Under the pieces are notes generated by a model. That model saw nothing but the letters and a program-made list of their open reading frames with translations. It was not told the DNA's origin and made no database searches. Shown piece after piece: positions 1 through 45,332 of a DNA stretch of 45,332 bases. The first letter of the stretch is position 1; every line of letters starts with the position of its first letter. The translations under genes were made by a program, and so were the position numbers. Origin of the DNA: a virus; IMG/VR virus record IMGVR_UViG_3300046642_000365, positions 1 to 45,332 of that record. One strand, 5' to 3'.

Positions 1-124
1 TCGTGAACATCCTGAAGGCGGCGGGCGCCAAGGGACTCACGCGAGCGGAGCTCGTCCAGAAGATGGATGGGGTGGTTGTCACGCGACAGCCGCTCGGGCG
101 CATCCTGTCCTATTACCAGAAGGA
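1..124. repeat. 124-bp direct repeat of the two contig ends (left copy)
   Basis: Bases 1-124 are identical to 45208-45331; the next base differs (c at 125, g at 45332, the last base of the window). The repeat lies inside a reading frame that continues without interruption across the junction. This fits an assembly overlap on a circular or terminally redundant genome better than a physical end in non-coding DNA. A true short terminal repeat, as in T7-like phages, cannot be excluded. Confidence 0.9.
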
Positions 125-314: not shown

Positions 315-1301
315 ATGCTGCGACCAATGCTAGCCCTGAAGTGCCCTCGGTCCATGACGATGGACGAGTTCCTATCTCGCATACAGTATCCCGTCCTTGC
401 CACGCCCAAGGTGGATGGGATCAGGTGCATCACCACCCTAGACGAGGTTCCCCCGCCCGGGTATCTGTCCGTCCCACGGACCCGATCGATGCGCCCAGTG
501 CCGAACATGCACGTGGACAGGATGGTCGCCCAGTGTCCACCGTGGCTCGACGGGGAGCTGACGTGCGGAGACACCTTCCAGGCGGTCACTTCCGGGATCA
601 TGTCCATCCACGGCACCCCAGCATTCACGTACCACGTGTTCGACGCGCATATACTCGAGGCGCAGGACAATAAGATGCTGGCGACTAGGAGATCATACGG
701 GTCCCGCATCGACGATCTCAAGGAGTTGGACCTCCCACCGTTCTGCAATAAGCTTGTTCCAGTCCTCATAGGTTCCATTGGTGAGTTGATGATCTATGAG
801 GAGTGGTGCCTAGGCAATGGCGCCGAGGGCGTGATGATACGCCCGCCAGACTCCCCGTATCTGATGTCTCGATCCTCATTCAGGCGCCCGTACCTCGTGG
901 CCATCAAGCGGTTCGAAGATTCCGAGGCCCTGGTCCTTGGAGTGGAGCCGCTCATGCACAACGCGAACACGCCCGAGGTCAATGAGCTGGGATACCAGGA
1001 ACGATCGACTCGACGAGCCATGATGATGGAACAACCCCTCGTCGGCGCTCTGTTGGTGCGAGACATCCACACGAACGTGGCATTCAAGATCGGAACAGGA
1101 TTCACGACCGACCAGCGCTATATTTGGTGGGAAGATCGATCCCTCATCATCGGTAAGTTCGTCAAGTACCGCTATCAGGCACATGGGGCGAAGGACAAGC
1201 CCAGGATCCCATCGTTCGTGGGAATTCGGGACACATCCGACATGTCTGCGGGACAAATTAAGACTAGTGAAGACACACAATTATTATTCCCGCATGACTG
1301 A
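315..1301 (+). CDS. ATP-dependent DNA ligase
   Basis: A 328-residue nucleotidyltransferase that seals nicks in DNA, probably joining lagging-strand fragments during phage replication. Motif I KVDGIR is at residues 32-37, with Lys32 as the predicted AMP-accepting lysine. LDGEL is at 78-82, FTYHVFD at 104-110, EGVMIR at 171-176 and AIKRF (motif V) at about 196-200, followed by a C-terminal OB-fold-sized region. The length suits small phage ligases of the T7 type (T7 ligase is about 359 residues). It is the first gene of the plus-strand replication arm. ATG at 315 lacks a good ribosome site, and ATG at 327 is an alternative. Confidence 0.93.
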   Translation: MLRPMLALKCPRSMTMDEFLSRIQYPVLATPKVDGIRCITTLDEVPPPGYLSVPRTRSMRPVPNMHVDRMVAQCPPWLDGELTCGDTFQAVTSGIMSIHGTPAFTYHVFDAHILEAQDNKMLATRRSYGSRIDDLKELDLPPFCNKLVPVLIGSIGELMIYEEWCLGNGAEGVMIRPPDSPYLMSRSSFRRPYLVAIKRFEDSEALVLGVEPLMHNANTPEVNELGYQERSTRRAMMMEQPLVGALLVRDIHTNVAFKIGTGFTTDQRYIWWEDRSLIIGKFVKYRYQAHGAKDKPRIPSFVGIRDTSDMSAGQIKTSEDTQLLFPHD

Positions 1302-1324
1302 GATGAATTGCGTAATGATGCGTT

Positions 1325-1522
1325 ATGCCTATGAATGTATTAGATGATTTGAGCCCAATGCCATTTGGAAAGCACAGGGGAGAGCCAATGCAGGATGTTC
1401 CTGCACAATACCTCCATTGGTTGTGGACGAATGGATTGGACAGGAAGAGTGAAGTTGCTGACTACATTCGTCGAAACATGTCATCGCTTAAGCAGGAATA
1501 CCACGATGGAGTGTGGTCATGA
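1325..1522 (+). CDS. DUF3820-like small protein
   Basis: A 65-residue protein containing the pattern MPFGKHRGEPMQDVPAQYL followed by HWLW, typical of DUF3820, a small domain widespread in phages and bacteria. Its biochemical function is not established; an exonuclease or nucleic-acid association has been suggested for related proteins because of frequent fusion, but nothing here proves that. The stop codon overlaps the next start (ATGA at 1519-1522), so the two genes are probably translationally coupled. Confidence 0.8.
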   Translation: MPMNVLDDLSPMPFGKHRGEPMQDVPAQYLHWLWTNGLDRKSEVADYIRRNMSSLKQEYHDGVWS

Positions 1523-1719
1523 GCAACCTCCCACCATCAGACTATAACATGCCTCCCGGGGTGAGGACGTCCGACATCCCCGGGAATCGTCCAGGCGATG
1601 ACGAGTGCATCTGTGAGCACTGCTTAGAAGTGATGTCCGCGAGGGACGTGATGCTATACGACAACGACCCAGAGTGCGCGTGCCTGTGCTCCGCGTGTAG
1701 GGATAAGATACTCGGGTAA
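1519..1719 (+). CDS. small Cys-rich (zinc-ribbon-like) protein
   Basis: A 66-residue protein starting at the ATG of the ATGA overlap; a GTG at 1513 is also in frame. Cysteines are arranged as CICEHC about 25 residues after the start region, and CACLCSAC near the C-terminus. This CxxC/CxxC spacing suggests one zinc-binding ribbon. No enzymatic motif is seen, so a DNA- or protein-binding accessory role is the most that can be inferred. A promoter-like sequence begins 12 bases after its stop. Confidence 0.65.
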   Translation: MSNLPPSDYNMPPGVRTSDIPGNRPGDDECICEHCLEVMSARDVMLYDNDPECACLCSACRDKILG

Positions 1720-1731
1720 AGAATTTTCAAG

Positions 1732-1766
1732 TGTACGGGAATTATTATGCTTAGTATGATGTCAAT
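1732..1766 (+). promoter_or_regulatory. predicted leaderless promoter P1 (TGTACG-N17-TATGAT-N6-ATG)
   Basis: TGTACG at 1732-1737, a 17-bp spacer, TATGAT at 1755-1760, then six bases to the ATG at 1767. A start six bases after the -10 hexamer puts +1 at the A of the start codon. The same arrangement occurs at 7784, 43917 and (minus strand) 42279. The upstream bases ATTTTCAAG are shared with the copy at 44964. Assignment as a promoter is an inference from the repeated pattern. Confidence 0.65.
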
Positions 1767-1916
1767 ATGCCAGCGAAACTTGAGCATCAATTAGAGGCCG
1801 AAGCCAACAAGAAGCACCTGAAGGGTAAGCATCGCGCCGCATACATCTATGGGACGATGCGTAAAACCGGGTGGAAGCCAAAGCGTGAGCGCGGACATAC
1901 CGCGCTAACGGACTAA
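1767..1916 (+). CDS. small basic conserved phage protein
   Basis: A 49-residue basic protein, MPAKLEHQLEAEANKK followed by HLKGKHRAAYIYGTMRKTGWKP. The combination of a helix rich in Lys and Glu and the AYIYGTxRKxGWKP ending resembles tiny conserved proteins found in many phage genomes. I know of no assigned function; the positive charge would fit nucleic-acid binding. It directly follows a promoter-like element with no room for a leader, so its mRNA is predicted to be leaderless. It is too short for many gene callers. Confidence 0.7.
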   Translation: MPAKLEHQLEAEANKKHLKGKHRAAYIYGTMRKTGWKPKRERGHTALTD

Positions 1917-1919
1917 TCC

Positions 1920-2345
1920 GTGAGTGACCTGAAAATAGTCGCATTCATGCTGTCTCCATCGAGGGCAGTCGATCTGGACATATCGCTATACGCCCAAGAT
2001 CAAGAATACCATAGGATGGTGATGAGGCAGTCAATGTCAGGACGACGACTGGCCCAAGCATTCGGTGACATGTTTGATCAGATCCACTGGGATAACGTGA
2101 ATCCTATGTCAGGAGCTGTTGATGCTGACATGAGTCACGTCAAGAAGATCATTAAGAATATTCAGCCAGACCTAATCATCGGGATTGGTGGAGTTGCGCG
2201 TAAGGCAGTTCACTTGATTGATCCAGATGCCTTCTCATGTCACCACCCCAATGCGAGGTACCGGACCCAGGACGACCTCAATGCATTCGCCCATCGGGTG
2301 AGGTGCTGGGTGCACGCGAGGACCACCAACAACGGACTATTATGA
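1920..2345 (+). CDS. putative uracil-DNA-glycosylase-superfamily protein
   Basis: A 141-residue protein starting with GTG three bases after the previous stop. The segment LIIGIGGVARKAV (about 85-97) followed by CHHPNARYRTQDDLNAF (about 108-124) resembles the beta-strand/G-x-x-A and HPS/HPN motifs of small phage UDG-fold proteins. The N-terminal catalytic loop typical of active UDGs is not evident, so it may be a sensor or an inactive homologue rather than a repair enzyme. A base-recognition role would fit the neighbouring nucleotide-modification genes, but this is speculative. Its stop overlaps the methyltransferase start (ATGA). Confidence 0.4.
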   Translation: MSDLKIVAFMLSPSRAVDLDISLYAQDQEYHRMVMRQSMSGRRLAQAFGDMFDQIHWDNVNPMSGAVDADMSHVKKIIKNIQPDLIIGIGGVARKAVHLIDPDAFSCHHPNARYRTQDDLNAFAHRVRCWVHARTTNNGLL

Positions 2346-3226
2346 ATGCCCGAGGCAAGTCCCTGGACACCACGTTCTTGTCACTCGACCAGGCCGAGGA
2401 TCGCATGTTCATCCACAGGGACTATATCGCGCACTGCCTCAGGTGGACTCACGTGGTGAAGCGACTCTTTCAGCAGGGCACCTACAAGACCGCCGTAGTT
2501 CTGGACGTGGGCTGTGGCAGGGAGCTCCCGCTGGCTAAGCTCATGTATACGTCCAGGATCGCCCCGCTGATGTATTTTGGCGTGGATGCGGGTCCCATCA
2601 ATGACGAGGACTCTGACATTCTCAGCAATGCGCGACACTTCAGGCACAAGGTGTGGGAGAGGACGAACATACTGGAAATAGGGACCCTGGACCTCACTGC
2701 CCCAGGATGCGATGAGAAGCTTAAGCCCAACTTCGTGACGTGCTTCGAGGTGCTAGAGCACGTTGAGCCCAGGATGATGATCGCGATGCTAGAACACGTC
2801 AAGTCCCTGGCAACGGACGATGCTGAGTTCTACTTCTCAACCCCGTGTTGGAATCGAGTGGATTGCGCGGACAATCACGTGAACGAGATGCTCTACCAGT
2901 CCCTCGGGTCCTTGTTCGAGAGGCGTGGGTTCGACATAGTGAGGGTCAGCGGGACATTTGCGTCGATACGGGACTACCAGCACTTATTGAGGAACACTCC
3001 TTGGGGAGACCTGAACCACCTGTTCGACGCGCTGAGGGGACATTACGACTCGAACTTTTTGTCGTGCATCTTCGCCCCGCTGTTCCCAGCCAATAGCAGG
3101 AACTGCCTGTGGGAGCTGAGGAAGCACGATCCCATAGATAGTGCATATACTCCAAAGTTTCCCAAGATCCACGAAATTGAGCGCCCGTGGTCGTCATCGG
3201 CGCTCTGGACGGAGATGGAATTATGA
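2342..3226 (+). CDS. class I SAM-dependent methyltransferase
   Basis: A 294-residue protein from the ATG in the ATGA overlap at 2342-2345. Motif I VLDVGCGRELPL is at residues 53-64; YFGVDAG corresponds to the acidic ribose-binding strand, and VTCFEVLEHVEP to motif IV of UbiG/Methyltransf_11-type enzymes. No DPPY/NPPY motif of amino-methylating DNA methylases and no PC-ENV motif of C5-cytosine methylases is visible, so DNA bases are not the obvious target; a nucleotide, small molecule or protein is equally possible. It lies upstream of the nucleotide-metabolism cassette and overlaps the next gene. Confidence 0.8.
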   Translation: MNARGKSLDTTFLSLDQAEDRMFIHRDYIAHCLRWTHVVKRLFQQGTYKTAVVLDVGCGRELPLAKLMYTSRIAPLMYFGVDAGPINDEDSDILSNARHFRHKVWERTNILEIGTLDLTAPGCDEKLKPNFVTCFEVLEHVEPRMMIAMLEHVKSLATDDAEFYFSTPCWNRVDCADNHVNEMLYQSLGSLFERRGFDIVRVSGTFASIRDYQHLLRNTPWGDLNHLFDALRGHYDSNFLSCIFAPLFPANSRNCLWELRKHDPIDSAYTPKFPKIHEIERPWSSSALWTEMEL

Positions 3227-3396
3227 CTGAGAAGCAAGAAACATTAAGCATGCTCAACGAGCAAGTATTCATAGCGGTGAAGTTGATTCCGCTAAGTGAG
3301 AAACAAGCGCACATGATAGACTTCTCGACATTGCAGGAGGCACTCAGGACGGCTCTCGCACTGTCGACGAGGCTGGAAAGCATGGTGAAGTCATGA
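3223..3396 (+). CDS. small hypothetical protein
   Basis: A 57-residue protein beginning at the ATG of an ATGA overlap with the methyltransferase stop. It is predicted largely helical (MLNEQVFIAVKLIPLSEKQAHM, then a helix ending ALSTRLESMVKS, shown here in fragments) with no recognisable domain. It overlaps the next start by four bases, so it lies in an uninterrupted chain of coupled genes. Function unknown. Confidence 0.6.
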   Translation: MTEKQETLSMLNEQVFIAVKLIPLSEKQAHMIDFSTLQEALRTALALSTRLESMVKS

Positions 3397-3887
3397 GCGA
3401 GAATGAGAAGTTACTTCGTGAGAAACTTAAAGAGGCACTAAGTTATGATCCTAAAGACTTGAGTGATACTGGATTAATCGCTTGTGGACTCGCCCTCCTG
3501 CTTAAGAATGAATTTCCCGAGCGAACCATCTTCGACGATGTGTGTGACTTCCACGAGAAGTTCAAGATCAACTACTCTGGTCCACCACGGGACCTCCCAT
3601 CGGCAGATCTATTCTTCAGGCAGGCGCGCCTGGAAGAGGAGTTCACTGAATACATGGATGCCACCACTCGGGCCGAGATGTTCGACGCGCTGATCGACCT
3701 GATCTACATCGCGCTTGGGACGATACACTTGCATGGGTGGAACTTCAATGAGGGATGGCGACGAGTGCACGATGCCAACATGAGAAAAGTTCTTTCCTCC
3801 AAGGAAAATCCTGGGAAGTATGGCGCGAAAATTGACGTGGTGAAGCCAGCGAACTGGATCGCCCCAGACCTCAAGGACCTCGCGTGA
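3393..3887 (+). CDS. MazG/PRA-PH-like NTP pyrophosphohydrolase
   Basis: A 164-residue all-alpha NTP pyrophosphatase. The metal-binding pattern is visible as EEFTE at residues 82-86 and, one helix later, EMFDALID with Glu95, Asp98 and Asp102, matching the EExxE...ExxD signature of the MazG/dCTPase/phosphoribosyl-ATP pyrophosphohydrolase superfamily. These enzymes cleave (d)NTPs to (d)NMPs and PPi. In this cassette it precedes a dNMP kinase and a TS-family enzyme with a cytosine-type active site, so a dCTPase that supplies dCMP and removes unmodified dCTP (the role of T4 gp56) is a reasonable inference. Substrate is unproven. Both ends overlap neighbours by four bases. Confidence 0.78.
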   Translation: MSENEKLLREKLKEALSYDPKDLSDTGLIACGLALLLKNEFPERTIFDDVCDFHEKFKINYSGPPRDLPSADLFFRQARLEEEFTEYMDATTRAEMFDALIDLIYIALGTIHLHGWNFNEGWRRVHDANMRKVLSSKENPGKYGAKIDVVKPANWIAPDLKDLA

Positions 3888-4504
3888 TCCCCACGATCTT
3901 CATAGTCGAGGGACTAGACTGCACGGGAAAGACCACGCTCGCCCGACACATGGCTGACAGACTCAGGGCATCATACTTCCACGCGTCTGGGTCCAAGTCA
4001 CTGCACCTAGGAATGATGGCGTATCACAAGAGCATACTCGAGCACGCCCTAGTCACCTGCAATAATGGAGTGAGCGTGGTGCTTGACAGGCACTGGCCAT
4101 CCGAATGGTGCTATGGGAGGATCCTCAGGTCGCACGTGACTGAACGACACTACAACTTCAACAGTATCGTGTCCGTGATGGAGAAGATCGACCCAGTATA
4201 CGTGCACTGTAAGTCAGAGCACTCATATCAGGCGCAGACTAAGTCCCTGGAGAATCATTGCGGTGATCGCAAATATACGGAACAGGAATTTTCCATGATT
4301 GGGGCTGAGTACCGCACGATGTTCTTAGCCATGAGGATGGCGAAGAGGGTCAAGGTCGTGGATTACGTGCTTGAGGATGACGGCAAGAACATGGATGAGT
4401 GGATAACGAATAAGCTAATTCCAGCGATATACTATGAGTGCGAACAACGAATTTCTGCACCTCCTGAGGGACGTGATGCTCAGGGGAGTCAACTCAACTC
4501 CTGA
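3884..4504 (+). CDS. deoxynucleoside monophosphate (thymidylate-type) kinase
   Basis: A 206-residue P-loop kinase starting with GTG in a GTGA overlap. The P-loop GLDCTGKTT is at residues 10-18; VVLDRHWPSEW (about 65-75) matches the DR-x-x-x-S region of thymidylate kinases. It phosphorylates a dNMP to the dNDP with ATP. In the context of a putative dCTPase upstream and a putative dCMP hydroxymethylase downstream, it may act on hydroxymethyl-dCMP as T4 gp1 does, although the fold here looks like thymidylate kinase rather than T4 gp1. Its last 71 bases overlap the next gene in another frame, a long overlap that supports tight coupling. Confidence 0.8.
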   Translation: MIPTIFIVEGLDCTGKTTLARHMADRLRASYFHASGSKSLHLGMMAYHKSILEHALVTCNNGVSVVLDRHWPSEWCYGRILRSHVTERHYNFNSIVSVMEKIDPVYVHCKSEHSYQAQTKSLENHCGDRKYTEQEFSMIGAEYRTMFLAMRMAKRVKVVDYVLEDDGKNMDEWITNKLIPAIYYECEQRISAPPEGRDAQGSQLNS

Positions 4505-5225
4505 TGGCAAGATGTGTCGTGAATTGCTCGGCCACGTCACCAGGGTCCCGATGTGGTCCCCGCTCGTCACTCTGCACGACAGGGCCCTGAATTATGGGTT
4601 CGCCGCAGCTGAGGCCGTGTGGTATCTTACTGGGAATAATAGATCTGACGTCCTCGCCAAGCACATCAAGTGCTACGACAAGTATGCCAAGGGCGGGATC
4701 ATCACGTGGGCATATGGTCCAAAGATAGTGGACCAGCTCGCGTACGTCATTGAGTCCCTGAACAAGGACCGCGCGACGAGGAGATCCGTGCTATCCACCT
4801 GGAGGGAAAATCCGAGGTGGGATGATCCCCCGTGCACGCTCACCATGCAATTCATGATCAGGGATGACATACTGGAGTGCATGGTCACGATGAGGTCGTC
4901 AGATTCGTGGCTCGGGTGGCCATATGATGTGTTCTCATTCTCAATGATCGCGATGTACGTAGGACTCTCGCTTGAAGTGAGGCCAAAGCATCTCGGGGAA
5001 TTGACGATCTTCGCTGGGTCACAGCACATCTATGAGACCGACGTGGAGAAGGTAGACGCACTCATAGCACAAGACAAGCCAAATTATCTTCTTTGTAGTA
5101 CCGACTGGTGGCCACAGCTCAAGTCTCCAGGACACTTGATAGCGGAGCTTGAGTGCATTAGGGATGAGGCATGGGGCGCGAAGAACACGCAGTTCATGGA
5201 GGAGCTCAGCCATGACCCTCTCTGA
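4434..5225 (+). CDS. thymidylate-synthase-family enzyme, predicted dCMP hydroxymethylase
   Basis: A 263-residue ThyA-fold protein. Residues aligned by eye with E. coli ThyA: Glu60 (Glu58), Arg116-Arg117 (Arg126-127), catalytic Cys134 in PPC (Cys146), RSSD at 154-157 (Arg166 to Asp169), and His198/Tyr200 (His207/Tyr209). The position of ThyA Asn177, which reads the uracil ring, is Asp165 (GWPYD instead of G-PFN). Asn-to-Asp here is the known switch to dCMP in T4 dCMP hydroxymethylase and in engineered TS. The Trp80 position (YGKQW in E. coli) appears to be Ile97, which could admit water as needed for hydroxymethylation. The likely reaction is dCMP plus methylene-THF to 5-hydroxymethyl-dCMP. 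An ordinary thymidylate synthase or a dCMP methylase are the alternatives. Confidence 0.75.
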   Translation: MSANNEFLHLLRDVMLRGVNSTPDGKMCRELLGHVTRVPMWSPLVTLHDRALNYGFAAAEAVWYLTGNNRSDVLAKHIKCYDKYAKGGIITWAYGPKIVDQLAYVIESLNKDRATRRSVLSTWRENPRWDDPPCTLTMQFMIRDDILECMVTMRSSDSWLGWPYDVFSFSMIAMYVGLSLEVRPKHLGELTIFAGSQHIYETDVEKVDALIAQDKPNYLLCSTDWWPQLKSPGHLIAELECIRDEAWGAKNTQFMEELSHDPL

Positions 5226-5508
5226 GGCCAGGCACTTCATACTGACGAACTCCCACGACATCGTTGGGAGGCGATCAGGTCAGTGGGACGAGAAGAGACT
5301 CAAGAAGTGGAATGAGGCACATGTCATAGTCCACGATGAGATGACTCTCCAGGAACGACTAACCATCAGGGAAGATAAGGATCGAAAGCACGAGATTAGA
5401 ACCAGGATGTCATGCGTAAAAGAGACAACAGCGGAGGGCTCAACGAGCTCCTCCCAGGATTCCAGCCAAACTCAGACTGGAAACCTCCCACCAATTTCCC
5501 CAAGATAG
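5212..5508 (+). CDS. small hypothetical protein overlapping the polymerase start
   Basis: A 98-residue frame with a strong ribosome site (GGAGG about 12 bases upstream) and an ATG inside the end of the previous gene. The first 65 residues are charged and helical; the tail is Ser/Thr/Gln-rich and is read in the 97-base overlap with the polymerase gene, so the C-terminus may be under little selection. No domain recognised. It could be a replication accessory protein because it directly precedes the DNA polymerase. Confidence 0.55.
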   Translation: MTLSEARHFILTNSHDIVGRRSGQWDEKRLKKWNEAHVIVHDEMTLQERLTIREDKDRKHEIRTRMSCVKETTAEGSTSSSQDSSQTQTGNLPPISPR

Positions 5509-7328
5509 GTCCTAAGGAGACCATCTGCGTGGATGTTGAGACCAGGGACCCATCCCTGACCACCAGAGGTCCTGGATTCATCAGGAAGGACGCGGAAGTA
5601 GTGGGCATATCGCTCGCAGTACGTGACGAGGGATGGTATTTCCCAATAAGGCACCTAGGCGGGGGTAATTTAGATGAGAGTAATGTCATCTCATTCATCA
5701 CCGATGTCCTATCGCATGACGAGAGAACGACAGTGGCTGCCAACATATCATATGACTTGGAGGCACTAAGATCACTGGGGATAAGGGCCCATGGAAAATT
5801 CATGGACGTGCAGGTCGTGGAGTCACTAATTGATGAGGAATCTGACGCTGGGTATTCATTAGACGCGATTTGCCACAAGTATCTGGGGAATGGCAAGGAC
5901 GAGTCCTTACTTAAGAGCGCCGCGGACGCGTACGGAGTGGATGTCAAGGGCGGATTGTGGAAATTACCATCCAGGTACGTTGGACCATACGCTGAGTTCG
6001 ATGCCATCGCCCCATTGAGGATTCTGCGAGAGCAACTGAAGGTCGTCAAGTCTGAGAATCTTGAGCAGGTACTGACGCTCGAGTGCGAGATGATACCAGT
6101 GCTGCACGAGATGAGGCACTTAGGAATACCAGTGGACATGAGTGGAGCTGAGAAACTATCAGCAGACCTGCGCGACGCAGAAGCTGTGGCACAGACTGAG
6201 CTCAACAAGTTGGCTGGCAGGCCAATAGACGCGTGGTCAGGCAAGCAAATAGAGGGATTGTGCAGGGACCGTGGAATAAACGTGCCCAGGACACTGCTCG
6301 GGAACCCATCATTCGCAGGTAAGTGGCTTGAGGAGTTCACTGATGATGCGATGAACATGATCCACGAGGTGCGAGAAATCAACAGGATATGCACGTTCGT
6401 GAATGACTGGGTCCTGAAGAATGCTATCTGTGGTCGCATCCACCCGAATTGGATTCAGCTCGCATCTGAGGATGGCGGGACACGCAGCGGGAGACTCGCG
6501 TGCAGCAATCCTAACATGCAGCAGATCCCAGCCATCAATAAGAGGAACGGCAAGCCAAGTCCGTGGGGTCAGCGCATTAGGTCCCTGTTCATCTCAGACT
6601 CTAGTATGTGGGGAAAGTTCGACTACTCTCAGCAGGAGCCTCGCATACTCACGCACTTCGCGAACGTGTGCGGATACACCGGGGCGAACCTCGCGGCCAT
6701 AGCATACAAGAGTGATCCCAACATGGACTTCTACAAGTTCATGATGGATGCCGCAGGAATCAACAGGCGCACGGCCAAGGATATGTATCTGGGACGGTGC
6801 TATGGCATGGGCAAGGAGAAACTATCCTACACGCTCAACAAGCCCATCGACGAGTGTGAGAAGATCCTCAAGAATTTCGACGAGTGCGTTCCATTCGTGA
6901 AGGAGATCGCCGAGAAGTGCACTCAATTGGCATCGTCCCGGGGCTACATCAAGACCCTGTGCGGGCGAAGGCGTCACTTTAATAAGTGGGAGCCAGTTGA
7001 TGCATACAAGATGCGTAAACAGGGTCATGACGTGAGGCCGGTCACTCTGGAAGCGTCCAAGGCGAAGTGGCCCAAGTTAATGACGCGCAGGTCGGAGACC
7101 CACAAGGGACTCAACGCGCTCATCCAGGGATCGGCCGCAGACATGATGAAGTCTGCCCTCGTCATGGCATACAAGGCCGGAAAAGTTCCATACATATCGG
7201 TGCATGACGAGATAGGATGTCCGATACTTGGGAATGATGCTAAGGAGTGGCAGGAGATCATGGAGGCGTGCGTGGAGACGACGGTTCCGATCAAGGTGGA
7301 CGTATCTACTGGGAGGAGCTGGTCATGA
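5412..7328 (+). CDS. family A DNA polymerase with 3'-5' exonuclease
   Basis: A 638-residue replicative polymerase. The proofreading site is intact: Exo I VDVET (Asp41, Glu43), Exo II NISYDLEAL (Asp115), Exo III YAEFDAI (Asp197). The polymerase site shows motif A DYSQQEPR (Asp404), motif B RRTAKDMYLGRCYG (452-465) and motif C VHDE (about 597-600). The residue aligned with E. coli Phe762 is Leu460; Phe, Tyr or Leu at this site is a much-used marker in phage ecology. There is no 5'-3' exonuclease domain, as in T7 gp5. The N-terminal segment LLPGFQPNSDWKPP is typical for such phage polymerases and supports the start at 5412. It runs directly into the nuclease gene (ATGATG). Confidence 0.96.
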   Translation: MRKRDNSGGLNELLPGFQPNSDWKPPTNFPKIGPKETICVDVETRDPSLTTRGPGFIRKDAEVVGISLAVRDEGWYFPIRHLGGGNLDESNVISFITDVLSHDERTTVAANISYDLEALRSLGIRAHGKFMDVQVVESLIDEESDAGYSLDAICHKYLGNGKDESLLKSAADAYGVDVKGGLWKLPSRYVGPYAEFDAIAPLRILREQLKVVKSENLEQVLTLECEMIPVLHEMRHLGIPVDMSGAEKLSADLRDAEAVAQTELNKLAGRPIDAWSGKQIEGLCRDRGINVPRTLLGNPSFAGKWLEEFTDDAMNMIHEVREINRICTFVNDWVLKNAICGRIHPNWIQLASEDGGTRSGRLACSNPNMQQIPAINKRNGKPSPWGQRIRSLFISDSSMWGKFDYSQQEPRILTHFANVCGYTGANLAAIAYKSDPNMDFYKFMMDAAGINRRTAKDMYLGRCYGMGKEKLSYTLNKPIDECEKILKNFDECVPFVKEIAEKCTQLASSRGYIKTLCGRRRHFNKWEPVDAYKMRKQGHDVRPVTLEASKAKWPKLMTRRSETHKGLNALIQGSAADMMKSALVMAYKAGKVPYISVHDEIGCPILGNDAKEWQEIMEACVETTVPIKVDVSTGRSWS

Positions 7329-7771
7329 TGTTTGAGCAGGGAATTAGTGACCATGGTCCCAAGAAGAGGGAACGAGACTTTTATCGTTACCTCACACAGT
7401 ATTTTCCCGGACACGTGACTCGCATAGAGACCAGGACAACCTGTGGAGTTCCTGACATCGTGATATGTCATGTGGGAATCACGGTCTGGGTAGAATTAAA
7501 GTCAACGTTCACTGGGTCGTATACCCTCCTAAGGAAGGAGCAATATGCTTGGGGCATGGGACATGCCACGAAGGGCGGGAAGGTGTTCGTGATCTCTAGA
7601 CTCGAGGATCGAATAGTTGGAAATGATGAGGTTCAGGTGTGGAAGTATCCATTCAATGTTAAGGCGTATGGAATAGCAGCTAGGTATGTTTCCCCATCAC
7701 TGAAGAGCACCATATTTAGGGGCAGTAAGTCCTCGTTCGTGCAGTCATTGGAATCTTTACTATTCACGTGA
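7325..7771 (+). CDS. VRR-NUC / endonuclease I-like nuclease (Holliday resolvase type)
   Basis: A 148-residue PD-(D/E)xK nuclease. GVPDIVI followed by VWVELKST gives the metal-binding D...ExK core, and RKEQYAWGMGHATKGGKVFVI is the typical following helix-strand unit of VRR-NUC and phage endonuclease I-type enzymes. In T7 the equivalent enzyme resolves branched DNA before packaging and degrades host DNA. The start is the ATG at 7325 (ATGA overlap with the polymerase stop); an immediately following ATG is also possible. The gene is last before a promoter-like element at 7784. Confidence 0.85.
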   Translation: MMFEQGISDHGPKKRERDFYRYLTQYFPGHVTRIETRTTCGVPDIVICHVGITVWVELKSTFTGSYTLLRKEQYAWGMGHATKGGKVFVISRLEDRIVGNDEVQVWKYPFNVKAYGIAARYVSPSLKSTIFRGSKSSFVQSLESLLFT

Positions 7772-7783
7772 GTGATTGTTCTG

Positions 7784-7818
7784 TATACGAGAAAAATTTC
7801 GCATGATACGATAACGAT
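7784..7818 (+). promoter_or_regulatory. predicted leaderless promoter P2 (TATACG-N17-TACGAT-N6-ATG)
   Basis: TATACG at 7784-7789, a 17-bp spacer, TACGAT at 7807-7812, then six bases (aacgat) to the ATG at 7819. It shares GCATGATACGAT-like sequence around the -10 with the copy at 43917 (CATGATACGAT). There is no Shine-Dalgarno sequence, so the transcript would begin at or next to the start codon. Promoter activity is inferred. Confidence 0.65.
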
Positions 7819-8370
7819 ATGATAGTAACAAATCCATTAACTCAGCAGCCGCTGACTGACAGTGACCTGGAGGCACTGTCTGCGCTAGCGAATAAGCTGT
7901 TAGCCGTACAGGCAGAGATGGGCACGTTGGAGGTCCAGCTCAAGAATCGGGCCGAGATGGCCAAGAACCTAGAATTCACCCTCATTCCGGAGGCGATGTC
8001 ACGCATAGGCATGACGAAGTTCGTCCTGAGCAATGGGGTCGTTGTGGAGGTGGCACCATATTACGCGTGCTATCTCAGCGAGGAAGAGCCAGAACTAAAG
8101 ACGCGAGGAATTGCGTGGCTCAGGGCGAATAAGTATGCTTCACTCGTCAAGAATGAGATCAAGGTGAATCTTGACAGTGACAGCAACAAGGAATCATTGA
8201 TGATCCAGAAGTATCTGGACAAGCACGGCATCCAGTATGCCAAGAAGGAGATGGTTCACCCATCCACGCTGAAGAGCCTGATGAGGGAACTGATCGAGTC
8301 TGGCAAGAATTTCCCGATGGATATATTCAGGGCCATCACCGGGAAGAGAGCAAAACTAACAAACAACTAG
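7819..8370 (+). CDS. conserved phage protein of unknown function
   Basis: A 183-residue protein with an N-terminal helical region (about residues 10-60, heptad-like, LSALANKLLAVQAEMGTLEV) and a C-terminal half ending in helices (SLMRELIESGKNFPMDIF). It is the first gene after predicted promoter P2 and is followed by the putative ssDNA-binding protein; that pairing is common in phages with this type of replication module. A role as a DNA-binding or recombination partner is possible, but I see no catalytic motif. Confidence 0.6.
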   Translation: MIVTNPLTQQPLTDSDLEALSALANKLLAVQAEMGTLEVQLKNRAEMAKNLEFTLIPEAMSRIGMTKFVLSNGVVVEVAPYYACYLSEEEPELKTRGIAWLRANKYASLVKNEIKVNLDSDSNKESLMIQKYLDKHGIQYAKKEMVHPSTLKSLMRELIESGKNFPMDIFRAITGKRAKLTNN

Positions 8371-8391
8371 GCCCTGTTGAGAGGAAAACAA

Positions 8392-9186
8392 ATGGCTAAA
8401 ACAACAAAGGTGTCAACAGCCGCGGCACCACAAACTGCGGCTATAGACTGGTCCCAGTACGGGAATGACCAGCCCACAGGATTCGAGAGAGTATCCAGGG
8501 AGGACCTGGGGATACCATTCCTCTGCATCGTGCAGAAGGGAAGTCCCGAATATGACAAGACCCACAAGGACTACGACGAGAAGCAGATCGATGACTGCAA
8601 TGTTGGCGACATCTTCAACTCACTGTCCAGGGAGATAGTTCATCGGCAGGGAGGTAATGAGCTCGCGTTCGTCCCGTGCGGATATGACAAGATGTACGTG
8701 GAGTGGAAGACCAGGGAATCTGGCGGTGGGATGGTTAAGTCACACCGTGATCCAGCCATCATGGAGGAGGTCGTGTCTCGCAATGACAAGGGACAGAACG
8801 TCCTCAGGAATGGGAATGTCCTCGTGGACACTGCCTACTTCTTTGGACTTATTCCAAACAATGGGGATAACACGATGGCCGTCATCGGGATGGCATCCAC
8901 GCAACTCAAGCATGCGAGGTTCTGGCTGAACCTCATGACTGGCCTGAAGGTTGGTCCGAATCGCAGGACTCCCCCGATGTTCAGCCACAAGTATGCCATC
9001 AGTACCGTCCCAGAGCGCAACGAGAAGGGATCATGGTTCGGGTGGAAGATCGAGTGTGCCGAGATGATCTCTGATGCTGGGCTCGTGGCTGAGGGCGCGA
9101 AGGTGTGCGCCAGGGTCACGAACATATCTAGGCCAATGCTCGGAGCGGGCGCACCAGCCCCGACGAGTGACGATGTCCCGATGTGA
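8392..9186 (+). CDS. putative ssDNA-binding / DNA-metabolism protein
   Basis: A 264-residue protein that starts at ATG 8392, six bases after a GAGGAAAA ribosome site that is repeated before the gene at 45051. The N-terminal tail is Ala/Thr-rich, followed by a region with GIPFLCIVQKGSPEYDK and a later stretch HARFWLNLMTG. The C-terminus is flexible and acidic (APTSDDVPM), as in many ssDNA-binding proteins that recruit replication partners. Position between the polymerase/nuclease and primase genes fits an SSB-like role, as does an expected high expression level. No OB-fold signature can be confirmed by eye, so the name is tentative. Confidence 0.55.
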   Translation: MAKTTKVSTAAAPQTAAIDWSQYGNDQPTGFERVSREDLGIPFLCIVQKGSPEYDKTHKDYDEKQIDDCNVGDIFNSLSREIVHRQGGNELAFVPCGYDKMYVEWKTRESGGGMVKSHRDPAIMEEVVSRNDKGQNVLRNGNVLVDTAYFFGLIPNNGDNTMAVIGMASTQLKHARFWLNLMTGLKVGPNRRTPPMFSHKYAISTVPERNEKGSWFGWKIECAEMISDAGLVAEGAKVCARVTNISRPMLGAGAPAPTSDDVPM

Positions 9187-9202
9187 TGAATAGAGGATAC
9201 AC

Positions 9203-10738
9203 ATGCATGAACTCGCACAAGAGTTCATGGACCTATTCACGGGACACGACAAGGTCCATGGAGTCTACACGATCGGCCAGGACGCCAAGGCGGGAAGCAA
9301 TGGTAAGATCGTTGGGCGAGCAGCCACCGTAAGTAAGCCACTAACGCTTGGCCAGTGGGACTTGCACCTTCGTGGAGTCCAGGGACTTGGGGTGGTCCCG
9401 ATCATGGCAGATCAATCGTGCCTATTTGGTGCCATCGACGTGGATGTGTATCCAATAGACATGAAGGTGCTGGCCAAGAAATTGTTTGATGAGAAGCTCC
9501 CCCTGATTCCGTGCAAGACGAAATCGGGGGGAGCTCACTTATACTTGTTCCTCTCAGAGAGGACTGAGGCAAGAGTCCTGATAAACAAGCTCAGGGAATT
9601 CGCCTCAGTCCTTGGATACGGGGAGTGTGAGATCTATCCAAGGCAATCGCAAGTGATTGAGTCTCGTGGAGACATGGGCAACTGGATCAACATGCCATAC
9701 TTCCGCGCGAGTGAGACGGACAGGTACGCGCTAGGGGATGCGCTCAATCCACTGACTCCCGAATTATTCCTACAAGTCGCCAAGTCGAGGAAGATCACGA
9801 GGGATCAGCTGGTGAACTGGAGGGTGGTAGTTCCAGACCTTCTCCCAGGAGGACCGCCGTGCTTACAGCGACTGATCTCGCAAGGTTTTCCGCAAGGGAC
9901 TCGCAACAATGGGCTGTTCAACCTTGGAGTGTATTTCATGAAGGCACATCCAGAGGGATGGGAGAAGCACGTGGAGGAGGCGAACCAGAAGCATATGACT
10001 CCACCGCTCTCATCTGAGGAGACCTTGGCGGTGATCAGGTCAGTCAGGAAGAAGGAATATACTTATACATGTAAGGCACAGCCAATACAGTCATTCTGTG
10101 ACTCAGCGAAGTGTAGACTGTGCGCGCATGGGATCGGTGGTGGAGACATAGGGATGCCACGCATGGGATCGTTAAGCAAGCTCAACACTTCCCCAGCGAT
10201 CTGGTTCATTGACGTGGAGACTGACGACGGCGGTAGGAGGCTGGAACTCACCACTGAGGACCTGCAGTCCCCACTCAGGTTCCAGACGAGGTGCATGGAA
10301 TCACTCAACATGATGCCACAACTCATCAAGAGGGAACAGTGGCATTCGATCGTGTCTAAGATGATGGAGGGAGTCACGGTACTTGATGTTCCAGCAGAGA
10401 TGCGACCCGCAGGAAATCTATACGTGTATCTCGAGGAGTTCTGCACGAGCAGAGTTCAGGCCAAGACGGCGGATGAGATCATGCTCGGGAAACCATACTG
10501 CCACAATGGTGAGATCAACTTCAGGATGACGGACTTCATGCGATACTTGGATAGGGTTCGGTACAGGGACCTGAGCATGAGCCAGGTGGCGATGCATATC
10601 AGGGACATCGCTGGGTCGAGGAGGGGATTCATGAGGATCAGGGGACGTGGAGTGACCACTTTCTGCATACCAGAGAACACGTTCATCAGGCAGACTGAGA
10701 AGTTCGAGACTCCAGCACAACCACACCCGCCGATATGA
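9203..10738 (+). CDS. archaeo-eukaryotic-type primase (AEP/prim-pol)
   Basis: A 511-residue protein starting at ATG 9203 behind a GAGGA ribosome site. The AEP catalytic core is visible: IDVDVY with Asp79 and Asp81, then SGGAHLYLF with His112, and GNWINMPYF at about 168-176. A cysteine cluster (FCDSAKCRLCAHGIGG) after residue 290 resembles the zinc-binding element that follows the catalytic domain in TOTE-type and phage prim-pols. It synthesises primers for the family A polymerase and stands in for the TOPRIM primase-helicase (gp4) of T7. Its last bases overlap the helicase start (ATGA). Confidence 0.85.
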   Translation: MHELAQEFMDLFTGHDKVHGVYTIGQDAKAGSNGKIVGRAATVSKPLTLGQWDLHLRGVQGLGVVPIMADQSCLFGAIDVDVYPIDMKVLAKKLFDEKLPLIPCKTKSGGAHLYLFLSERTEARVLINKLREFASVLGYGECEIYPRQSQVIESRGDMGNWINMPYFRASETDRYALGDALNPLTPELFLQVAKSRKITRDQLVNWRVVVPDLLPGGPPCLQRLISQGFPQGTRNNGLFNLGVYFMKAHPEGWEKHVEEANQKHMTPPLSSEETLAVIRSVRKKEYTYTCKAQPIQSFCDSAKCRLCAHGIGGGDIGMPRMGSLSKLNTSPAIWFIDVETDDGGRRLELTTEDLQSPLRFQTRCMESLNMMPQLIKREQWHSIVSKMMEGVTVLDVPAEMRPAGNLYVYLEEFCTSRVQAKTADEIMLGKPYCHNGEINFRMTDFMRYLDRVRYRDLSMSQVAMHIRDIAGSRRGFMRIRGRGVTTFCIPENTFIRQTEKFETPAQPHPPI

Positions 10739-12249
10739 ACCCTGACACGACCAGCCTAATATTCGGACCCCCAGGAACTGGCAAGACCCATGAACTCATA
10801 AGGATCGTGGAGTCCTTGCTAGAATCCGGACATGCCCCTGATGAGGTGTGTTATGTGGCATTCACTAGGAAGGCCGCGAATGAGGCTCGGGACAGGGCCA
10901 TGGAAAAGTTTAAGTTTACTCGGGACCAGCTCCCATACTTCAGGACTCTCCACGCCCTAGCATTCATGCAACTCGGACTCTCGAAGACACAAGTCATGGG
11001 GTACGGAGACTATGTGAAGCTCGCACAGATGCTAGGGATCTACATCACCTTTAAGGGAGTCAGTGAGGATGGGACCGTGCTAGGACTGTCCCGAGGTGAT
11101 CGATTATTCTTCATGGAGAATATGGCGAGGGCCCAGATGATCGACCTGAAAGAGTTCTGGGAGAGTAGGCCCGATGAGGACGTTTACTGGTATGAGCTGC
11201 TCAGGTTACACGAGACCGTGGTCGAGTACAAGGCGATCAATGGCAAGATGGACTTCACGGACATGATCACGAAGTTCTGTGAGATCGACGTGGTGCCCCA
11301 GGTAAAGTCGCTCCTATTAGATGAGGCGCAAGATCTCACGCCACTACAGTGGAAGATGATTGATAAGCTCAGCGTGGACGTTGAGGAGACATACATCGCT
11401 GGTGATGACGATCAGGCGATCTTCAGGTGGGCAGGCGCGGATCCATCCAGGTTCATGGGATTACCAGGGTCTCGGAGAGTGCTCCCGCTAAGCTACCGTG
11501 TTCCCACGCAGGTGCAACAGGTCGCCGAGGTCATCGTGAAGAGGATTTCGTCGCGCGTGGAGAAGGAGTGGTCTCCCGCCAAGCACGAAGGATCCGTGGA
11601 GTACGTGAACTCAATTGACCAGGTGGACATGTCCGAGGGGACGTGGCTGCTCTTGGCGAGGAACGTATATTTGCTGAAGCAGTTCAATGACCACTGCCTG
11701 AGTTCTGGATTAGTGTTCAGCTCTCACTTGGGATCGCCGATGAGTGGAGCTACTCTCAGGGCGATCAAGTCCTGGGAAATGCTCAGGAGGGAGGAACCCA
11801 TCACCAAGGCTGCCGCCATGGAGGTGTATGATCACATGTCATCCAGGAGGGGAGTCTCACATGGTGGGAAGTCCTCTCTCGAGAGGGTTCCTGAGAATCA
11901 GGAGATCACCGTGGAGTATTTGCGACTCCACCACGGACTACTGGTCAACAGCATCTGGCACGAGGCACTTGACAAGATACCTCCACAGGAGTGCGAATAC
12001 TTCCTAGCGGCCCTGAGGCGTGGTGAGAAGCTCCTCAAGGAGCCCCGCATAAGGATTGAGACGATACACGGGGTCAAGGGCGGTGAGGCGGATAGCATCG
12101 TGGTGTGCACGGACATGGCTGATCGCACGTGGAGGGAGTATGAGCAGTCCCCAGATGATGAGCACAGGGTGTGGTATGTCGCAGTCACTCGCGCCAGACG
12201 AAGACTATTCATAATGTCACCACAGACCAACATGTCATATGTCATATAG
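10735..12249 (+). CDS. SF1 DNA helicase, UvrD/Rep-like
   Basis: A 504-residue helicase. Walker A GPPGTGKT is at residues 11-18, motif Ia VAFTRKAANEA at about 41-51, DEAQD (motif II) at 196-200, GDDDQAIFRW (motif III) at about 223-232, LSYRVP (motif IV) near 247-252, TIHGVKGGEAD (motif V) near 445 and VAVTRARRRLF (motif VI) near the end. It unwinds DNA with ATP and probably serves as the replicative or recombination helicase, as Dda/UvrD-type enzymes do. It lies between the primase and a second helicase. Confidence 0.93.
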   Translation: MNPDTTSLIFGPPGTGKTHELIRIVESLLESGHAPDEVCYVAFTRKAANEARDRAMEKFKFTRDQLPYFRTLHALAFMQLGLSKTQVMGYGDYVKLAQMLGIYITFKGVSEDGTVLGLSRGDRLFFMENMARAQMIDLKEFWESRPDEDVYWYELLRLHETVVEYKAINGKMDFTDMITKFCEIDVVPQVKSLLLDEAQDLTPLQWKMIDKLSVDVEETYIAGDDDQAIFRWAGADPSRFMGLPGSRRVLPLSYRVPTQVQQVAEVIVKRISSRVEKEWSPAKHEGSVEYVNSIDQVDMSEGTWLLLARNVYLLKQFNDHCLSSGLVFSSHLGSPMSGATLRAIKSWEMLRREEPITKAAAMEVYDHMSSRRGVSHGGKSSLERVPENQEITVEYLRLHHGLLVNSIWHEALDKIPPQECEYFLAALRRGEKLLKEPRIRIETIHGVKGGEADSIVVCTDMADRTWREYEQSPDDEHRVWYVAVTRARRRLFIMSPQTNMSYVI

Positions 12250-12301
12250 GATGTTACGCGTCGCAACGCAATCAATCCTATGATATGCGGGATATAATTA
12301 T
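12250..12301 (+). promoter_or_regulatory. AT-rich spacer with TATAAT before SNF2-like helicase
   Basis: The 52-base spacer has TATAAT at 12293-12298, only three bases before the ATG at 12302, and TATGAT at 12279-12284. A GTTACG sequence at 12253 recalls the -35 element of the other predicted promoters, but its spacing to TATGAT is 20 bp. It is therefore only a weak promoter candidate. Confidence 0.3.
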
Positions 12302-13759
12302 ATGATAAAAGACACATCTAAATTTCCCCCGCATACACACGTGATGCCTCCATATGGTCACCAAGCGAAGATCCTGGGTGAGACCTGGAATAGGAAGCAA
12401 TTCGCGCTCTTCTGGGAAATGGGCGCTGGGAAGTCGAAGCCCATCATAGATACTGCGGCGATGCTCTTCCTCGCTGGGGAAATCGATGGGTTATGGATCG
12501 TGTGCGACAATGGGGCGTATAGGAACTGGACTGACTACGAGATCCCCAGGCATATGCCCCCGCACGTCCCAACCAGGACTGCTTACTGGGCATCCACGAT
12601 GAAGTCCGCTGAGAAGAGGAAGGTGGAGCAACTGCTAGTGGCAGTTGATGATGTCCTCGACATACTCGTCATGCCCGTTGAGGCGTTCAGTGCCACACGC
12701 GCGCCCATATTTGCCGAGGCATTCCTCAGGTCCCACTACCCAATGGGAGTGATCGATGAGTCCTCGAGCATCAAGAACCTCAAGGCCAACAGGACTGGGA
12801 AGATACTGTCACTGAGGAACTTCTGCGAGTACAGGAGGATCATGTCAGGAACTCCCATAACCAACAGTCCAATAGACCTGTTTTCCCAGTTCGAATTCCT
12901 TGAATCTGGCCTATTAGGATTCACGTCATACGTGGCATTCAGGAACCACTACTGTAAGTTGATGCTCATGGATGCTGGACGAGGCAAATTCCTCCAGATC
13001 GTCGGATACAAGAACCTGGAAGAGCTCACACAGAACATCCAACCCCACAGTTCCAGAGTTCTGAAGGTGGATTGCCTAGATCTTCCAGACAAGATCTATG
13101 AGCGATGCTTCGTGGAGCATACGGCGGAGCAACGGCTCGCCTACGAGACCCTGAGATCGACGGCAGTCATGGAGATGGAATCTGGGCAAGTGACCGTGAC
13201 ATCCGCACTGACCATGCTTGGGAAACTTCACCAGATCAACTGTGGTCACGTCAAGGACGATGATGGGATGACCCGAGACATTCCCAATAACAGGGTCTCT
13301 GAGCTATTGCGGCTCATCGAATTAGTCGACGGCAAAGTGATAGTGTGGGCATACTTCGTCAGGGACATTGAGTTGATAAGATTGGCACTGACCGCGGGGA
13401 ATATTAGGCACGTGCATTACTATGGTGCCACATCTCCCGATGACCGAGTGAAGGCGATAAATGACTTTAGGAATGATCCAGGGATCAAGGTGTTTTTGTC
13501 AAATCAGCAGACTGGTGGTAAGGGAATATCTCTCACTGAGGCATCTGACGTGGTATACTACTCGCAGTCGTTTTCATTAACGTCCAGGCTCCAGTCGGAG
13601 GACAGGTGCCATAGGCCTGGACAACACAGGAATGTCACGTACACGGACCTCGTCACGGCTAATACGGTGGACATCAAGATATGTGACGCACTGCGGGACA
13701 AGAAAGACCTGGCATCGAGCGTGCTCGACGTCTACAGGGAATGCCTCATTGGTTCATGA
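12302..13759 (+). CDS. SF2 helicase/translocase, SNF2-like
   Basis: A 485-residue ATPase. Motif I EMGAGKS is at residues 39-45; motif II reads IDESS at 151-155 instead of DEAH/DExH; motif III SGTPITNSPIDLFSQ follows; the C-terminal RecA lobe has SNQQTGGKGISLTEA and QSEDRCHRPGQ, the arginine-finger motif typical of SNF2 and phage DarB-like helicases. It probably remodels protein-DNA complexes or forks. The 3' end overlaps, in the opposite direction, the last 14 bases of the late lipoprotein gene, so the two transcription arms collide here. Confidence 0.9.
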   Translation: MIKDTSKFPPHTHVMPPYGHQAKILGETWNRKQFALFWEMGAGKSKPIIDTAAMLFLAGEIDGLWIVCDNGAYRNWTDYEIPRHMPPHVPTRTAYWASTMKSAEKRKVEQLLVAVDDVLDILVMPVEAFSATRAPIFAEAFLRSHYPMGVIDESSSIKNLKANRTGKILSLRNFCEYRRIMSGTPITNSPIDLFSQFEFLESGLLGFTSYVAFRNHYCKLMLMDAGRGKFLQIVGYKNLEELTQNIQPHSSRVLKVDCLDLPDKIYERCFVEHTAEQRLAYETLRSTAVMEMESGQVTVTSALTMLGKLHQINCGHVKDDDGMTRDIPNNRVSELLRLIELVDGKVIVWAYFVRDIELIRLALTAGNIRHVHYYGATSPDDRVKAINDFRNDPGIKVFLSNQQTGGKGISLTEASDVVYYSQSFSLTSRLQSEDRCHRPGQHRNVTYTDLVTANTVDIKICDALRDKKDLASSVLDVYRECLIGS

Positions 13760-45050: not shown

Positions 45051-45332
45051 ATGGCGAAACAAACTAAGACAGAAACCACCCAGGGCGTACCAACGACCAC
45101 TGGAAAGACACTCGCAGAAACAGCAGCTGAACGGGCCAAGGTGTCCGCCAAGGACAGGTTCACCTTCAAGAAAGACCTGGAGAAGGGCGCACCGCAGGCG
45201 AAGAACATCGTGAACATCCTGAAGGCGGCGGGCGCCAAGGGACTCACGCGAGCGGAGCTCGTCCAGAAGATGGATGGGGTGGTTGTCACGCGACAGCCGC
45301 TCGGGCGCATCCTGTCCTATTACCAGAAGGAG
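45051..45332 (+). CDS. 5' part of small winged-helix-like protein (continues at position 1)
   Basis: Starts at ATG 45051 with a GAGGAAAAC ribosome site identical in core to that of the gene at 8392. The N-terminal 40 residues are Thr/Lys-rich and probably disordered (MAKQTKTETTQGVPTTTG); a helical domain then begins (KNIVNILKAAGAKGLTRAEL). Joined with 1-170 the protein has 108 residues. The good ribosome site and own promoter suggest abundant expression, fitting a nucleoid- or DNA-binding protein; this is inferred. Confidence 0.8.
   Translation, partial: MAKQTKTETTQGVPTTTGKTLAETAAERAKVSAKDRFTFKKDLEKGAPQAKNIVNILKAAGAKGLTRAELVQKMDGVVVTRQPLGRILSYYQKE
45208..45331. repeat. 124-bp direct repeat of the two contig ends (right copy)
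   Basis: Right-hand copy of the sequence at 1-124. Joining position 45207 to position 1 restores a complete 108-residue reading frame, which supports a circular map with a unit length of about 45,207 bp. The single mismatch at the final base is probably an edge error. Confidence 0.9.

What the first reader, a model, noticed from the sequence alone, without database searches (positions are those of the whole stretch)
3393..5225. Overlapping cassette that could make 5-hydroxymethyl-dCTP in a T7-like phage
Three genes with overlapping ends encode a MazG/dCTPase-like pyrophosphatase, a dNMP kinase and a TS-family enzyme. In the last, Cys134, RSSD, His198 and Tyr200 are kept, but the uracil-reading Asn (ThyA Asn177) is Asp165, the change that gives T4 gp42 its preference for dCMP. 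The Trp80 position also appears to be Ile. Together they give the T4-like route dCTP to dCMP to hmdCMP to hmdCDP. T4-type phages have it; a short T7-like genome with it would be unusual. The phage DNA may thus carry modified cytosine and resist restriction.
Basis: partly seen in the sequence, partly recalled or inferred. Interest (0 to 1): 0.88.

Follow-up and report, generated by a model that had tools for sequence, protein, structure and literature searches.

The report
Phage cytosine-hydroxymethylation cassette with linked methyltransferase
A small environmental phage carries a compact set of genes that very probably replaces the cytosines of its DNA with 5-hydroxymethylcytosine, as phage T4 does but largely with unrelated helper enzymes, and the set comes with a dedicated methyltransferase that may add a further, still unknown decoration.

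Summary
Three overlapping genes (3393-5225) encode a MazG-like NTP pyrophosphatase, a TMPK-like kinase and a thymidylate-synthase-family enzyme with Asp165 at the ThyA Asn177 position. One detail is wrong: the Trp80 position is Tyr81, not Ile. ThyA is Leu/Asn at these two positions, SPO1 dUMP hydroxymethylase Asp/Asn, an Xp12-type phage (5-methyl-C) Asn/Asp, and T4 gp42 and the window Asp/Asp. Fold and family profile match MilA (CMP 5-hydroxymethylase) best, and a tree excludes true thymidylate synthases. The likely product is 5-hydroxymethyl-dCMP. A cultured relative with the same cassette (AXL3) has DNA cut only by enzymes with A/T-only sites. It is not the first such small podovirus: MW202510 is collinear, and two T7-like pelagiphages carry the enzyme and kinase, annotated as thymidylate synthase. 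New here is a fourth gene, a class I methyltransferase (2342-3226): every methyltransferase locus with full flanks (47/47), and all 5 matching records among 50,697 phage records, also carry the hydroxymethylase. It may cap the hydroxymethyl group. The pyrophosphatase and kinase are not detectably T4 gp56/gp1 relatives.

The parts
2342..3226 (+). class I SAM-dependent methyltransferase (Methyltransf_23, UbiG-like fold), 294 aa from the ATG at 2342 (ORF open from 2237); cassette partner of the hydroxymethylase
   Evidence: Pfam PF13489 4e-14; 61.7% identical to MW202510; linkage to the hydroxymethylase in 47/47 full-flank loci and 5/5 phage records; model pLDDT 90, generic class I MTase matches
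3393..3887 (+). MazG-like all-alpha NTP pyrophosphatase, predicted to clear dCTP to dCMP (substrate inferred from context)
   Evidence: PF01503 1.5e-10, phrog_671; metal-binding E82/E83/E86/D98/D102 invariant in 40/40; nearest solved relative DR2231, a MazG-like NTP pyrophosphohydrolase
3884..4504 (+). P-loop nucleoside monophosphate kinase (thymidylate-kinase-like), predicted hmdCMP kinase
   Evidence: phrog_761 5e-13; Walker A and DRxxxSExxY conserved; nearest solved relatives YorR and thymidylate kinases; beside the hydroxymethylase in 86 of 92 loci
4434..5225 (+). thymidylate-synthase-superfamily deoxycytidylate 5-hydroxymethylase (predicted)
   Evidence: PF00303 6e-26; Asp165 at ThyA N177 and Asp131 at -3 from Cys134; profile and fold closest to MilA CMP 5-hydroxymethylase; tree
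5412..7328 (+). family A DNA polymerase just downstream, the presumed incorporator of the modified nucleotide
   Evidence: PF00476 2.9e-47; 52% identical to MW202510 and in the same relative position there

Best explanation
The cassette makes 5-hydroxymethyl-dCTP during infection so that the phage polymerase builds DNA in which cytosine is replaced by 5-hydroxymethylcytosine or a derivative of it. The MazG-like enzyme (3393-3887) removes dCTP and supplies dCMP; the TS-family enzyme (4434-5225) adds a hydroxymethyl group to C5 of dCMP with methylene-tetrahydrofolate and water (Asp165 reads cytosine, Asp131 activates the water, Cys134 is the nucleophile); the kinase (3884-4504) raises hmdCMP to hmdCDP; the host nucleoside diphosphate kinase and the phage PolA finish the route. 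Modified cytosine would hide G/C-containing sites from host restriction enzymes. Shown by sequence: the genes, their motifs and the two specificity residues. Inferred: substrate and product, the order of steps, incorporation into DNA and the benefit to the phage. The linked methyltransferase is probably part of the same pathway; its step is not established.
For: Two-position residue test: (-3 from Cys, ThyA 177) is L/N in ThyA, D/N in SPO1 dUMP hydroxymethylase, N/D in DLP4 (relative of 5-methyl-C phage Xp12), D/D in T4 gp42 and the window; 116 of 119 distinct family members are D/D. T4 Asp145 and Asp179 are each required for hydroxymethylation of dCMP (PMC6400193). In MetaGPA, Asp at 177 and co-occurring PF01503 mark environmental contigs with modified cytosine (PMC8670742). 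The family profile hits MilA at 1.5e-43 against about 1e-26 for the best TS, and the model's best folds are MilA. The tree separates window and hydroxymethylases from ThyA and DLP4 (100/99 support); grouping the window with TS is rejected, p-AU 0.019. D/D also occurs in Lactobacillus phage ATCCB beside a beta-glucosyltransferase gene and in Xp15 beside a carbamoyltransferase gene. AXL3, with the same cassette, has DNA cut only by enzymes with A/T-only sites, 2 of 37 (PMC7504290). No DHFR found, as expected if tetrahydrofolate is not oxidised.
Against: No chemistry: no virion DNA, host or reads. T4's second signature (Ser94, two residues before the catalytic Tyr) is not kept: the window has Trp92, relatives mostly Gly. 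Two family members, including one of the closest relatives of the window phage (L015 = L100), have Asn instead of Asp at -3, so the -3 rule is not absolute or the product varies within the family. The pyrophosphatase's nearest solved relative is MazG-like DR2231 and not T4 gp56, so dCTP as its substrate is context only. The window has no dCMP deaminase, which most full cassettes have. 5-methyl-C could also explain AXL3's restriction resistance. 4- and 6-base palindromes are still somewhat under-represented in the genome.
Confidence: 0.77

Rival explanations
1. The enzyme is a dCMP methylase of the Xp12 kind and the DNA carries 5-methylcytosine.
For: Asp165 alone only selects dCMP; Asn-to-Asp mutants of TS make 5-methyl-dCMP (cited in PMC8670742). 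Phage DLP4, relative of 5-methyl-C phage Xp12, has a pyrophosphatase-TS-deaminase cluster. One of the closest relatives of the window phage (L015) has Asn at -3 like DLP4.
Against: The window has Asp131, the hydroxymethylase signature, where DLP4 has Asn and ThyA Leu. Reductive methylation makes dihydrofolate and DLP4 encodes DHFR next door; no DHFR was found in the window. DLP4 branches outside the hydroxymethylases (100/99).
Confidence: 0.12
2. It is a true thymidylate synthase, or a dUMP hydroxymethylase, of ordinary nucleotide metabolism.
For: Pfam and PHROG label it thymidylate synthase, as does the annotation of its relatives in pelagiphages and AXL3.
Against: Asp165 instead of Asn, Asp131 instead of Leu, Thr135 instead of His; grouping with TS rejected, p-AU 0.019; MilA is the best profile and fold match.
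Confidence: 0.06
3. The cassette makes hmC but the final base is a further decorated one: the linked methyltransferase acts on the hydroxymethyl group or the modified nucleotide (for example 5-methoxymethyl-dC). This extends the best explanation rather than excluding it.
For: The methyltransferase was found with the hydroxymethylase in 47 of 47 full-flank loci from a search made independently of it and in 5 of 5 phage records (chance about 5e-8). It is not found together with the known hmC capping carbamoyltransferase in the two loci that have that enzyme. Its fold is a generic class I methyltransferase, nearest to small-molecule and cap enzymes.
Against: No substrate evidence. Many hydroxymethylase loci lack it (pelagiphage type). 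L015 and L099, with Asn at -3, keep it. One bacterial-genome contig (L179) carries a 38% relative without a hydroxymethylase within 6 kb.
Confidence: 0.3

Closest known systems
Phage T4 hmC pathway (gp56 dCTPase, gp42 dCMP hydroxymethylase, gp1 dNMP kinase)
   Same: Same logical order of steps; gp42 shares the TS fold and both Asp residues.
   Different: Pyrophosphatase and kinase belong to other sequence families (MazG/DR2231-like and TMPK-like); genes form one overlapping cluster in a 45-kb genome; no carbamoyltransferase found and no glucosyltransferase recognised, a methyltransferase instead.
Podovirus MW202510 (ct3Et533, Manatee Spring)
   Same: Collinear methyltransferase, pyrophosphatase, kinase, hydroxymethylase, PolA, and the same virion genes.
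   Different: Also encodes a dCMP deaminase between hydroxymethylase and PolA; 38% identity in the hydroxymethylase, 62% in the methyltransferase, 73% in the major head protein.
Stenotrophomonas phage AXL3 and Pseudoxanthomonas phage PW916
   Same: Same gene set with D/D hydroxymethylase; AXL3 DNA resists G/C-site enzymes (PMC7504290).
   Different: Siphovirus (AXL3); has a dCMP deaminase; cassette annotated as thymidylate synthesis.
MetaGPA environmental cassettes / Xp15 (TS-family + PF01503 + dCMP deaminase + carbamoyltransferase making 5-carbamoyloxymethyl-dC)
   Same: Same core and the same Asp177 marker.
   Different: Carbamoyltransferase in place of the methyltransferase.
MilA, CMP 5-hydroxymethylase of mildiomycin synthesis
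   Same: Best structural and profile match; cytosine-specific hydroxymethylase.
   Different: Acts on CMP for antibiotic synthesis, not on dCMP for DNA.
Pelagibacter phages HTVC200P and HTVC119P (Autographiviridae)
   Same: True T7-like phages with a D/D family member and a linked kinase.
   Different: No pyrophosphatase, methyltransferase or deaminase found nearby; annotated as thymidylate synthase.

Membership tests
T4-type dCMP 5-hydroxymethylase | thymidylate-synthase fold with catalytic Cys, RS(S/N)D, His and Tyr | tested here: met
   Cys134, R154-D157, His198, Tyr200; model pLDDT 88, TS-fold matches
T4-type dCMP 5-hydroxymethylase | Asp at the ThyA Asn177 position (cytosine specificity; T4 Asp179) | tested here: met
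   Asp165
T4-type dCMP 5-hydroxymethylase | Asp/Glu three residues before the catalytic Cys (water activation; T4 Asp145) | tested here: met
   Asp131 before Cys134; criterion from PMC6400193
T4-type dCMP 5-hydroxymethylase | Ser/Thr two residues before the catalytic Tyr (T4 Ser94-x-Tyr96) | tested here: not met
   Window has Trp92-Ala93-Tyr94; most relatives Gly-Ala-Tyr. Hence it is called a hydroxymethylase that works like gp42, not a gp42 orthologue
T4-type dCMP 5-hydroxymethylase | conversion of dCMP to hmdCMP without oxidising tetrahydrofolate | not testable with these tools
   needs purified enzyme; only indirect support, no DHFR found
thymidylate synthase (ThyA) | Asn at position 177, Leu at 143 and grouping with TS | tested here: not met
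   Asp165 and Asp131; p-AU 0.019 against a clade with TS
Xp12-type dCMP methylase | Asp at 177 without Asp at -3; DHFR nearby | tested here: not met
   Asp131 present, no DHFR found; comparison rests on DLP4, Xp12 itself not held
T4 gp56 dCTPase | detectable sequence homology | tested here: not met
   profile comparison probability 2%; gp56 falls in PF08761, the window protein in PF01503
MazG-like NTP pyrophosphatase superfamily | ExxE...D..D metal site in an all-alpha domain | tested here: met
   PF01503 above cut-off; E82/E83/E86/D98/D102 invariant; DR2231 4e-19
T4 gp1 dNMP kinase (DNMK, PF21448) | homology beyond the P-loop | tested here: not met
   only the P-loop aligns, probability 6%; window kinase is phrog_761/TMPK-like
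Autographiviridae (T7-like phages) | phage-encoded single-subunit RNA polymerase and unidirectional genome | tested here: inconclusive
   no RNA polymerase match, but both searches lacked a positive control; most replication genes lie on + and virion genes on -

The most novel reading that the evidence does not exclude
The cassette ends not in hmC or glucosylated hmC but in a new cytosine hypermodification made by its dedicated class I methyltransferase, for example O-methylation of the 5-hydroxymethyl group to 5-methoxymethyl-dC, found in many environmental phages and in cultured AXL3 and PW916.
Probability: 0.25. Interest if true: 0.85.

Novelty: new variant of a known kind. Interest (0 to 1): 0.55.

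Why it matters
It shows a T4-like cytosine-replacement strategy assembled largely from other parts in 40-45 kb podoviruses, and it gives a simple two-residue reading (residue 177 and the residue three before the catalytic Cys) for telling thymidylate synthases, dUMP hydroxymethylases, dCMP methylases and dCMP hydroxymethylases apart in genomes where they are annotated 'thymidylate synthase'. The tight link of an uncharacterised methyltransferase to this enzyme points to a cytosine modification that can be tested at once in cultured phages AXL3 and PW916. If right, 'thymidylate synthase' genes of this subfamily in pelagiphages and Stenotrophomonas phages are misnamed and mark DNA that many restriction enzymes cannot cut.

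Tried and rejected
A viral-contig scan with the single protein found no relatives; the 7-sequence alignment then gave 224 matches. Xp12 itself is not in the collection, so DLP4 stood in for it. T4 gp56 and gp1 as homologues of the partner genes: rejected. Plain thymidylate synthase and dUMP hydroxymethylase: rejected on residues and tree. Carbamoyltransferase, DHFR and dCMP deaminase searched for in the window: none found. T7-type RNA polymerase: none found, but the searches had no positive control. Restriction-site counts show a mild shortage of several palindromes and do not decide for or against modification. A literature search for methoxymethyl cytosine in phages returned nothing.

Full report
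What is there. The window is one virus record of 45,332 bases. Its first 124 bases recur exactly at 45,208-45,331, so it is probably a complete genome assembled with a short terminal overlap. Genes 315-13759 on the + strand are mainly replication and nucleotide genes: ligase, methyltransferase, pyrophosphatase, kinase, TS-family enzyme, PolA, AEP-type primase, UvrD and SNF2 helicases. The - strand from about 42 kb down to about 13.7 kb holds virion genes: terminase, T7-type portal, major head protein, tail tubular proteins A and B, internal virion proteins, fibres. The virion is podovirus-like, nearest to MW202510 and then to HTVC010P-type pelagiphages; the replication module is not T7-like.

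The observation. The three ORFs are as stated, and their active-site motifs are intact and conserved in relatives. Asp165 aligns with ThyA Asn177. Just upstream lies a class I methyltransferase that belongs to the same cassette.

What the enzyme does. Two positions separate the known activities. Position 177 reads the base: Asn for uracil, Asp for cytosine. The residue three before the catalytic Cys decides between hydride transfer and hydration: Asp145 of T4 gp42 activates the water, and D145N abolishes activity (PMC6400193). On one alignment, ThyA is L/N, SPO1 gp29 (hm-dUMP) D/N, DLP4 (a relative of the 5-methyl-C phage Xp12, PMC9206674) N/D, and T4 gp42 D/D. The window is D/D, and so are 116 of 119 distinct relatives. 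D/D is also found in Lactobacillus phage ATCCB, next to a beta-glucosyltransferase gene, and in Xp15, next to a carbamoyltransferase gene, both hmC-capping contexts. The family profile matches MilA, a CMP 5-hydroxymethylase, at 1.5e-43 against about 1e-26 for the best thymidylate synthase; the AlphaFold model (mean pLDDT 88) has MilA as its top Foldseek matches. A careful tree places window and relatives apart from ThyA, phage E2 TS and DLP4 (100/99 support), and an AU test rejects joining the window to TS (p 0.019); some reference branches are long, so finer placement is unsure. Against full equivalence with gp42: the Ser94 signature is replaced by Trp92 here.

The supply line. The MazG-like protein keeps the E82 E83 E86 D98 D102 site (40/40) and the kinase keeps Walker A and the DR motif. 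Neither is detectably related to its T4 counterpart beyond the P-loop: gp56 is PF08761 and gp1 is PF21448, while here they are PF01503/DR2231-like and TMPK-like. The route is T4-like by function, put together from other families. The substrates are inferred from context. In MetaGPA, PF01503 and Asp177 TS-family genes mark contigs with modified cytosine (PMC8670742), which is independent experimental support for cassettes of this composition.

How common. Among 92 loci first examined, a kinase of this family lies near the enzyme in 86. Of 71 loci with enough flank, 37 have methyltransferase, pyrophosphatase, kinase and dCMP deaminase, 21 have the kinase only (pelagiphage type), and 2 have a carbamoyltransferase and no methyltransferase. 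The window lacks a dCMP deaminase, as do its near relatives L094-L098 and L100 within the flanks held. Cultured or deposited phages with it include MW202510, AXL3, PW916, MW202621, HTVC200P and HTVC119P. AXL3 DNA was cut by 2 of 37 enzymes, both with A/T-only sites (PMC7504290), which fits complete cytosine modification, though it does not say which one.

The methyltransferase. Searching with it alone gave 80 loci; all 47 with at least 4 kb on both sides hold the hydroxymethylase. Those without it are cut by a contig end, and one of them (L170) shows a hydroxymethylase fragment at its edge. In 50,697 phage records it occurs in 5, all with the cassette (chance about 5e-8 against the 1,733 records with any family match). 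In 84,980 bacterial and archaeal genomes there were only 4 matches, two of them beside a hydroxymethylase, one cut by the contig end, and one (L179) without it nearby. The fold is a generic class I methyltransferase nearest to small-molecule and cap enzymes. The inference that it acts on the hydroxymethylated nucleotide or base is attractive but untested. The two relatives with Asn at -3 that keep the methyltransferase (L015/L100, L099) argue for caution, either about this inference or about the -3 rule.

Verdict. It overstated rarity in small podoviruses and took orthology with T4 for granted. The best reading is a dCMP hydroxymethylase pathway producing hmC DNA (0.77), in a variant with a dedicated methyltransferase whose product is unknown.

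Noticed in passing
window 1920-2345 (+): Small protein 42% identical to a MW202510 gene annotated as a G:T/U mismatch DNA glycosylase; Pfam UDG match is weak (0.029, below cut-off). If real, it could repair deaminated modified cytosine.
   Followed up: partly
L015 7986-8804 (same contig as L100) and L099 9848-10633: Relatives with Asn instead of Asp at -3 from the catalytic Cys but Asp at 177: a natural change at the water-activating residue, possibly a switch to 5-methyl-dCMP.
   Followed up: partly
L003 8354-9172, L010 2881-3729 (HTVC200P, HTVC119P): Genes annotated thymidylate synthase in cultured Autographiviridae pelagiphages are D/D hydroxymethylase-type with a linked P-loop kinase; probably misannotated.
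   Followed up: partly
L050 3880-6492: A hydroxymethylase locus without the methyltransferase carries instead an 870-aa protein with a C5-cytosine DNA methylase domain (PF00145, 4.7e-19) next to the pyrophosphatase.
   Followed up: no
window 1-124 and 45208-45331: Exact 124-base terminal repeat, so the record is probably complete.
   Followed up: yes
whole window: Six-base palindromes are about 20% rarer than a Markov expectation (539 against 677), GGCC and TGCA also low: some restriction-site avoidance remains.
   Followed up: no
window 13749-15299 (-): 517-aa protein beginning with a lipoprotein-like signal (MGC) between the helicase and the tail genes, without a family match.
   Followed up: no
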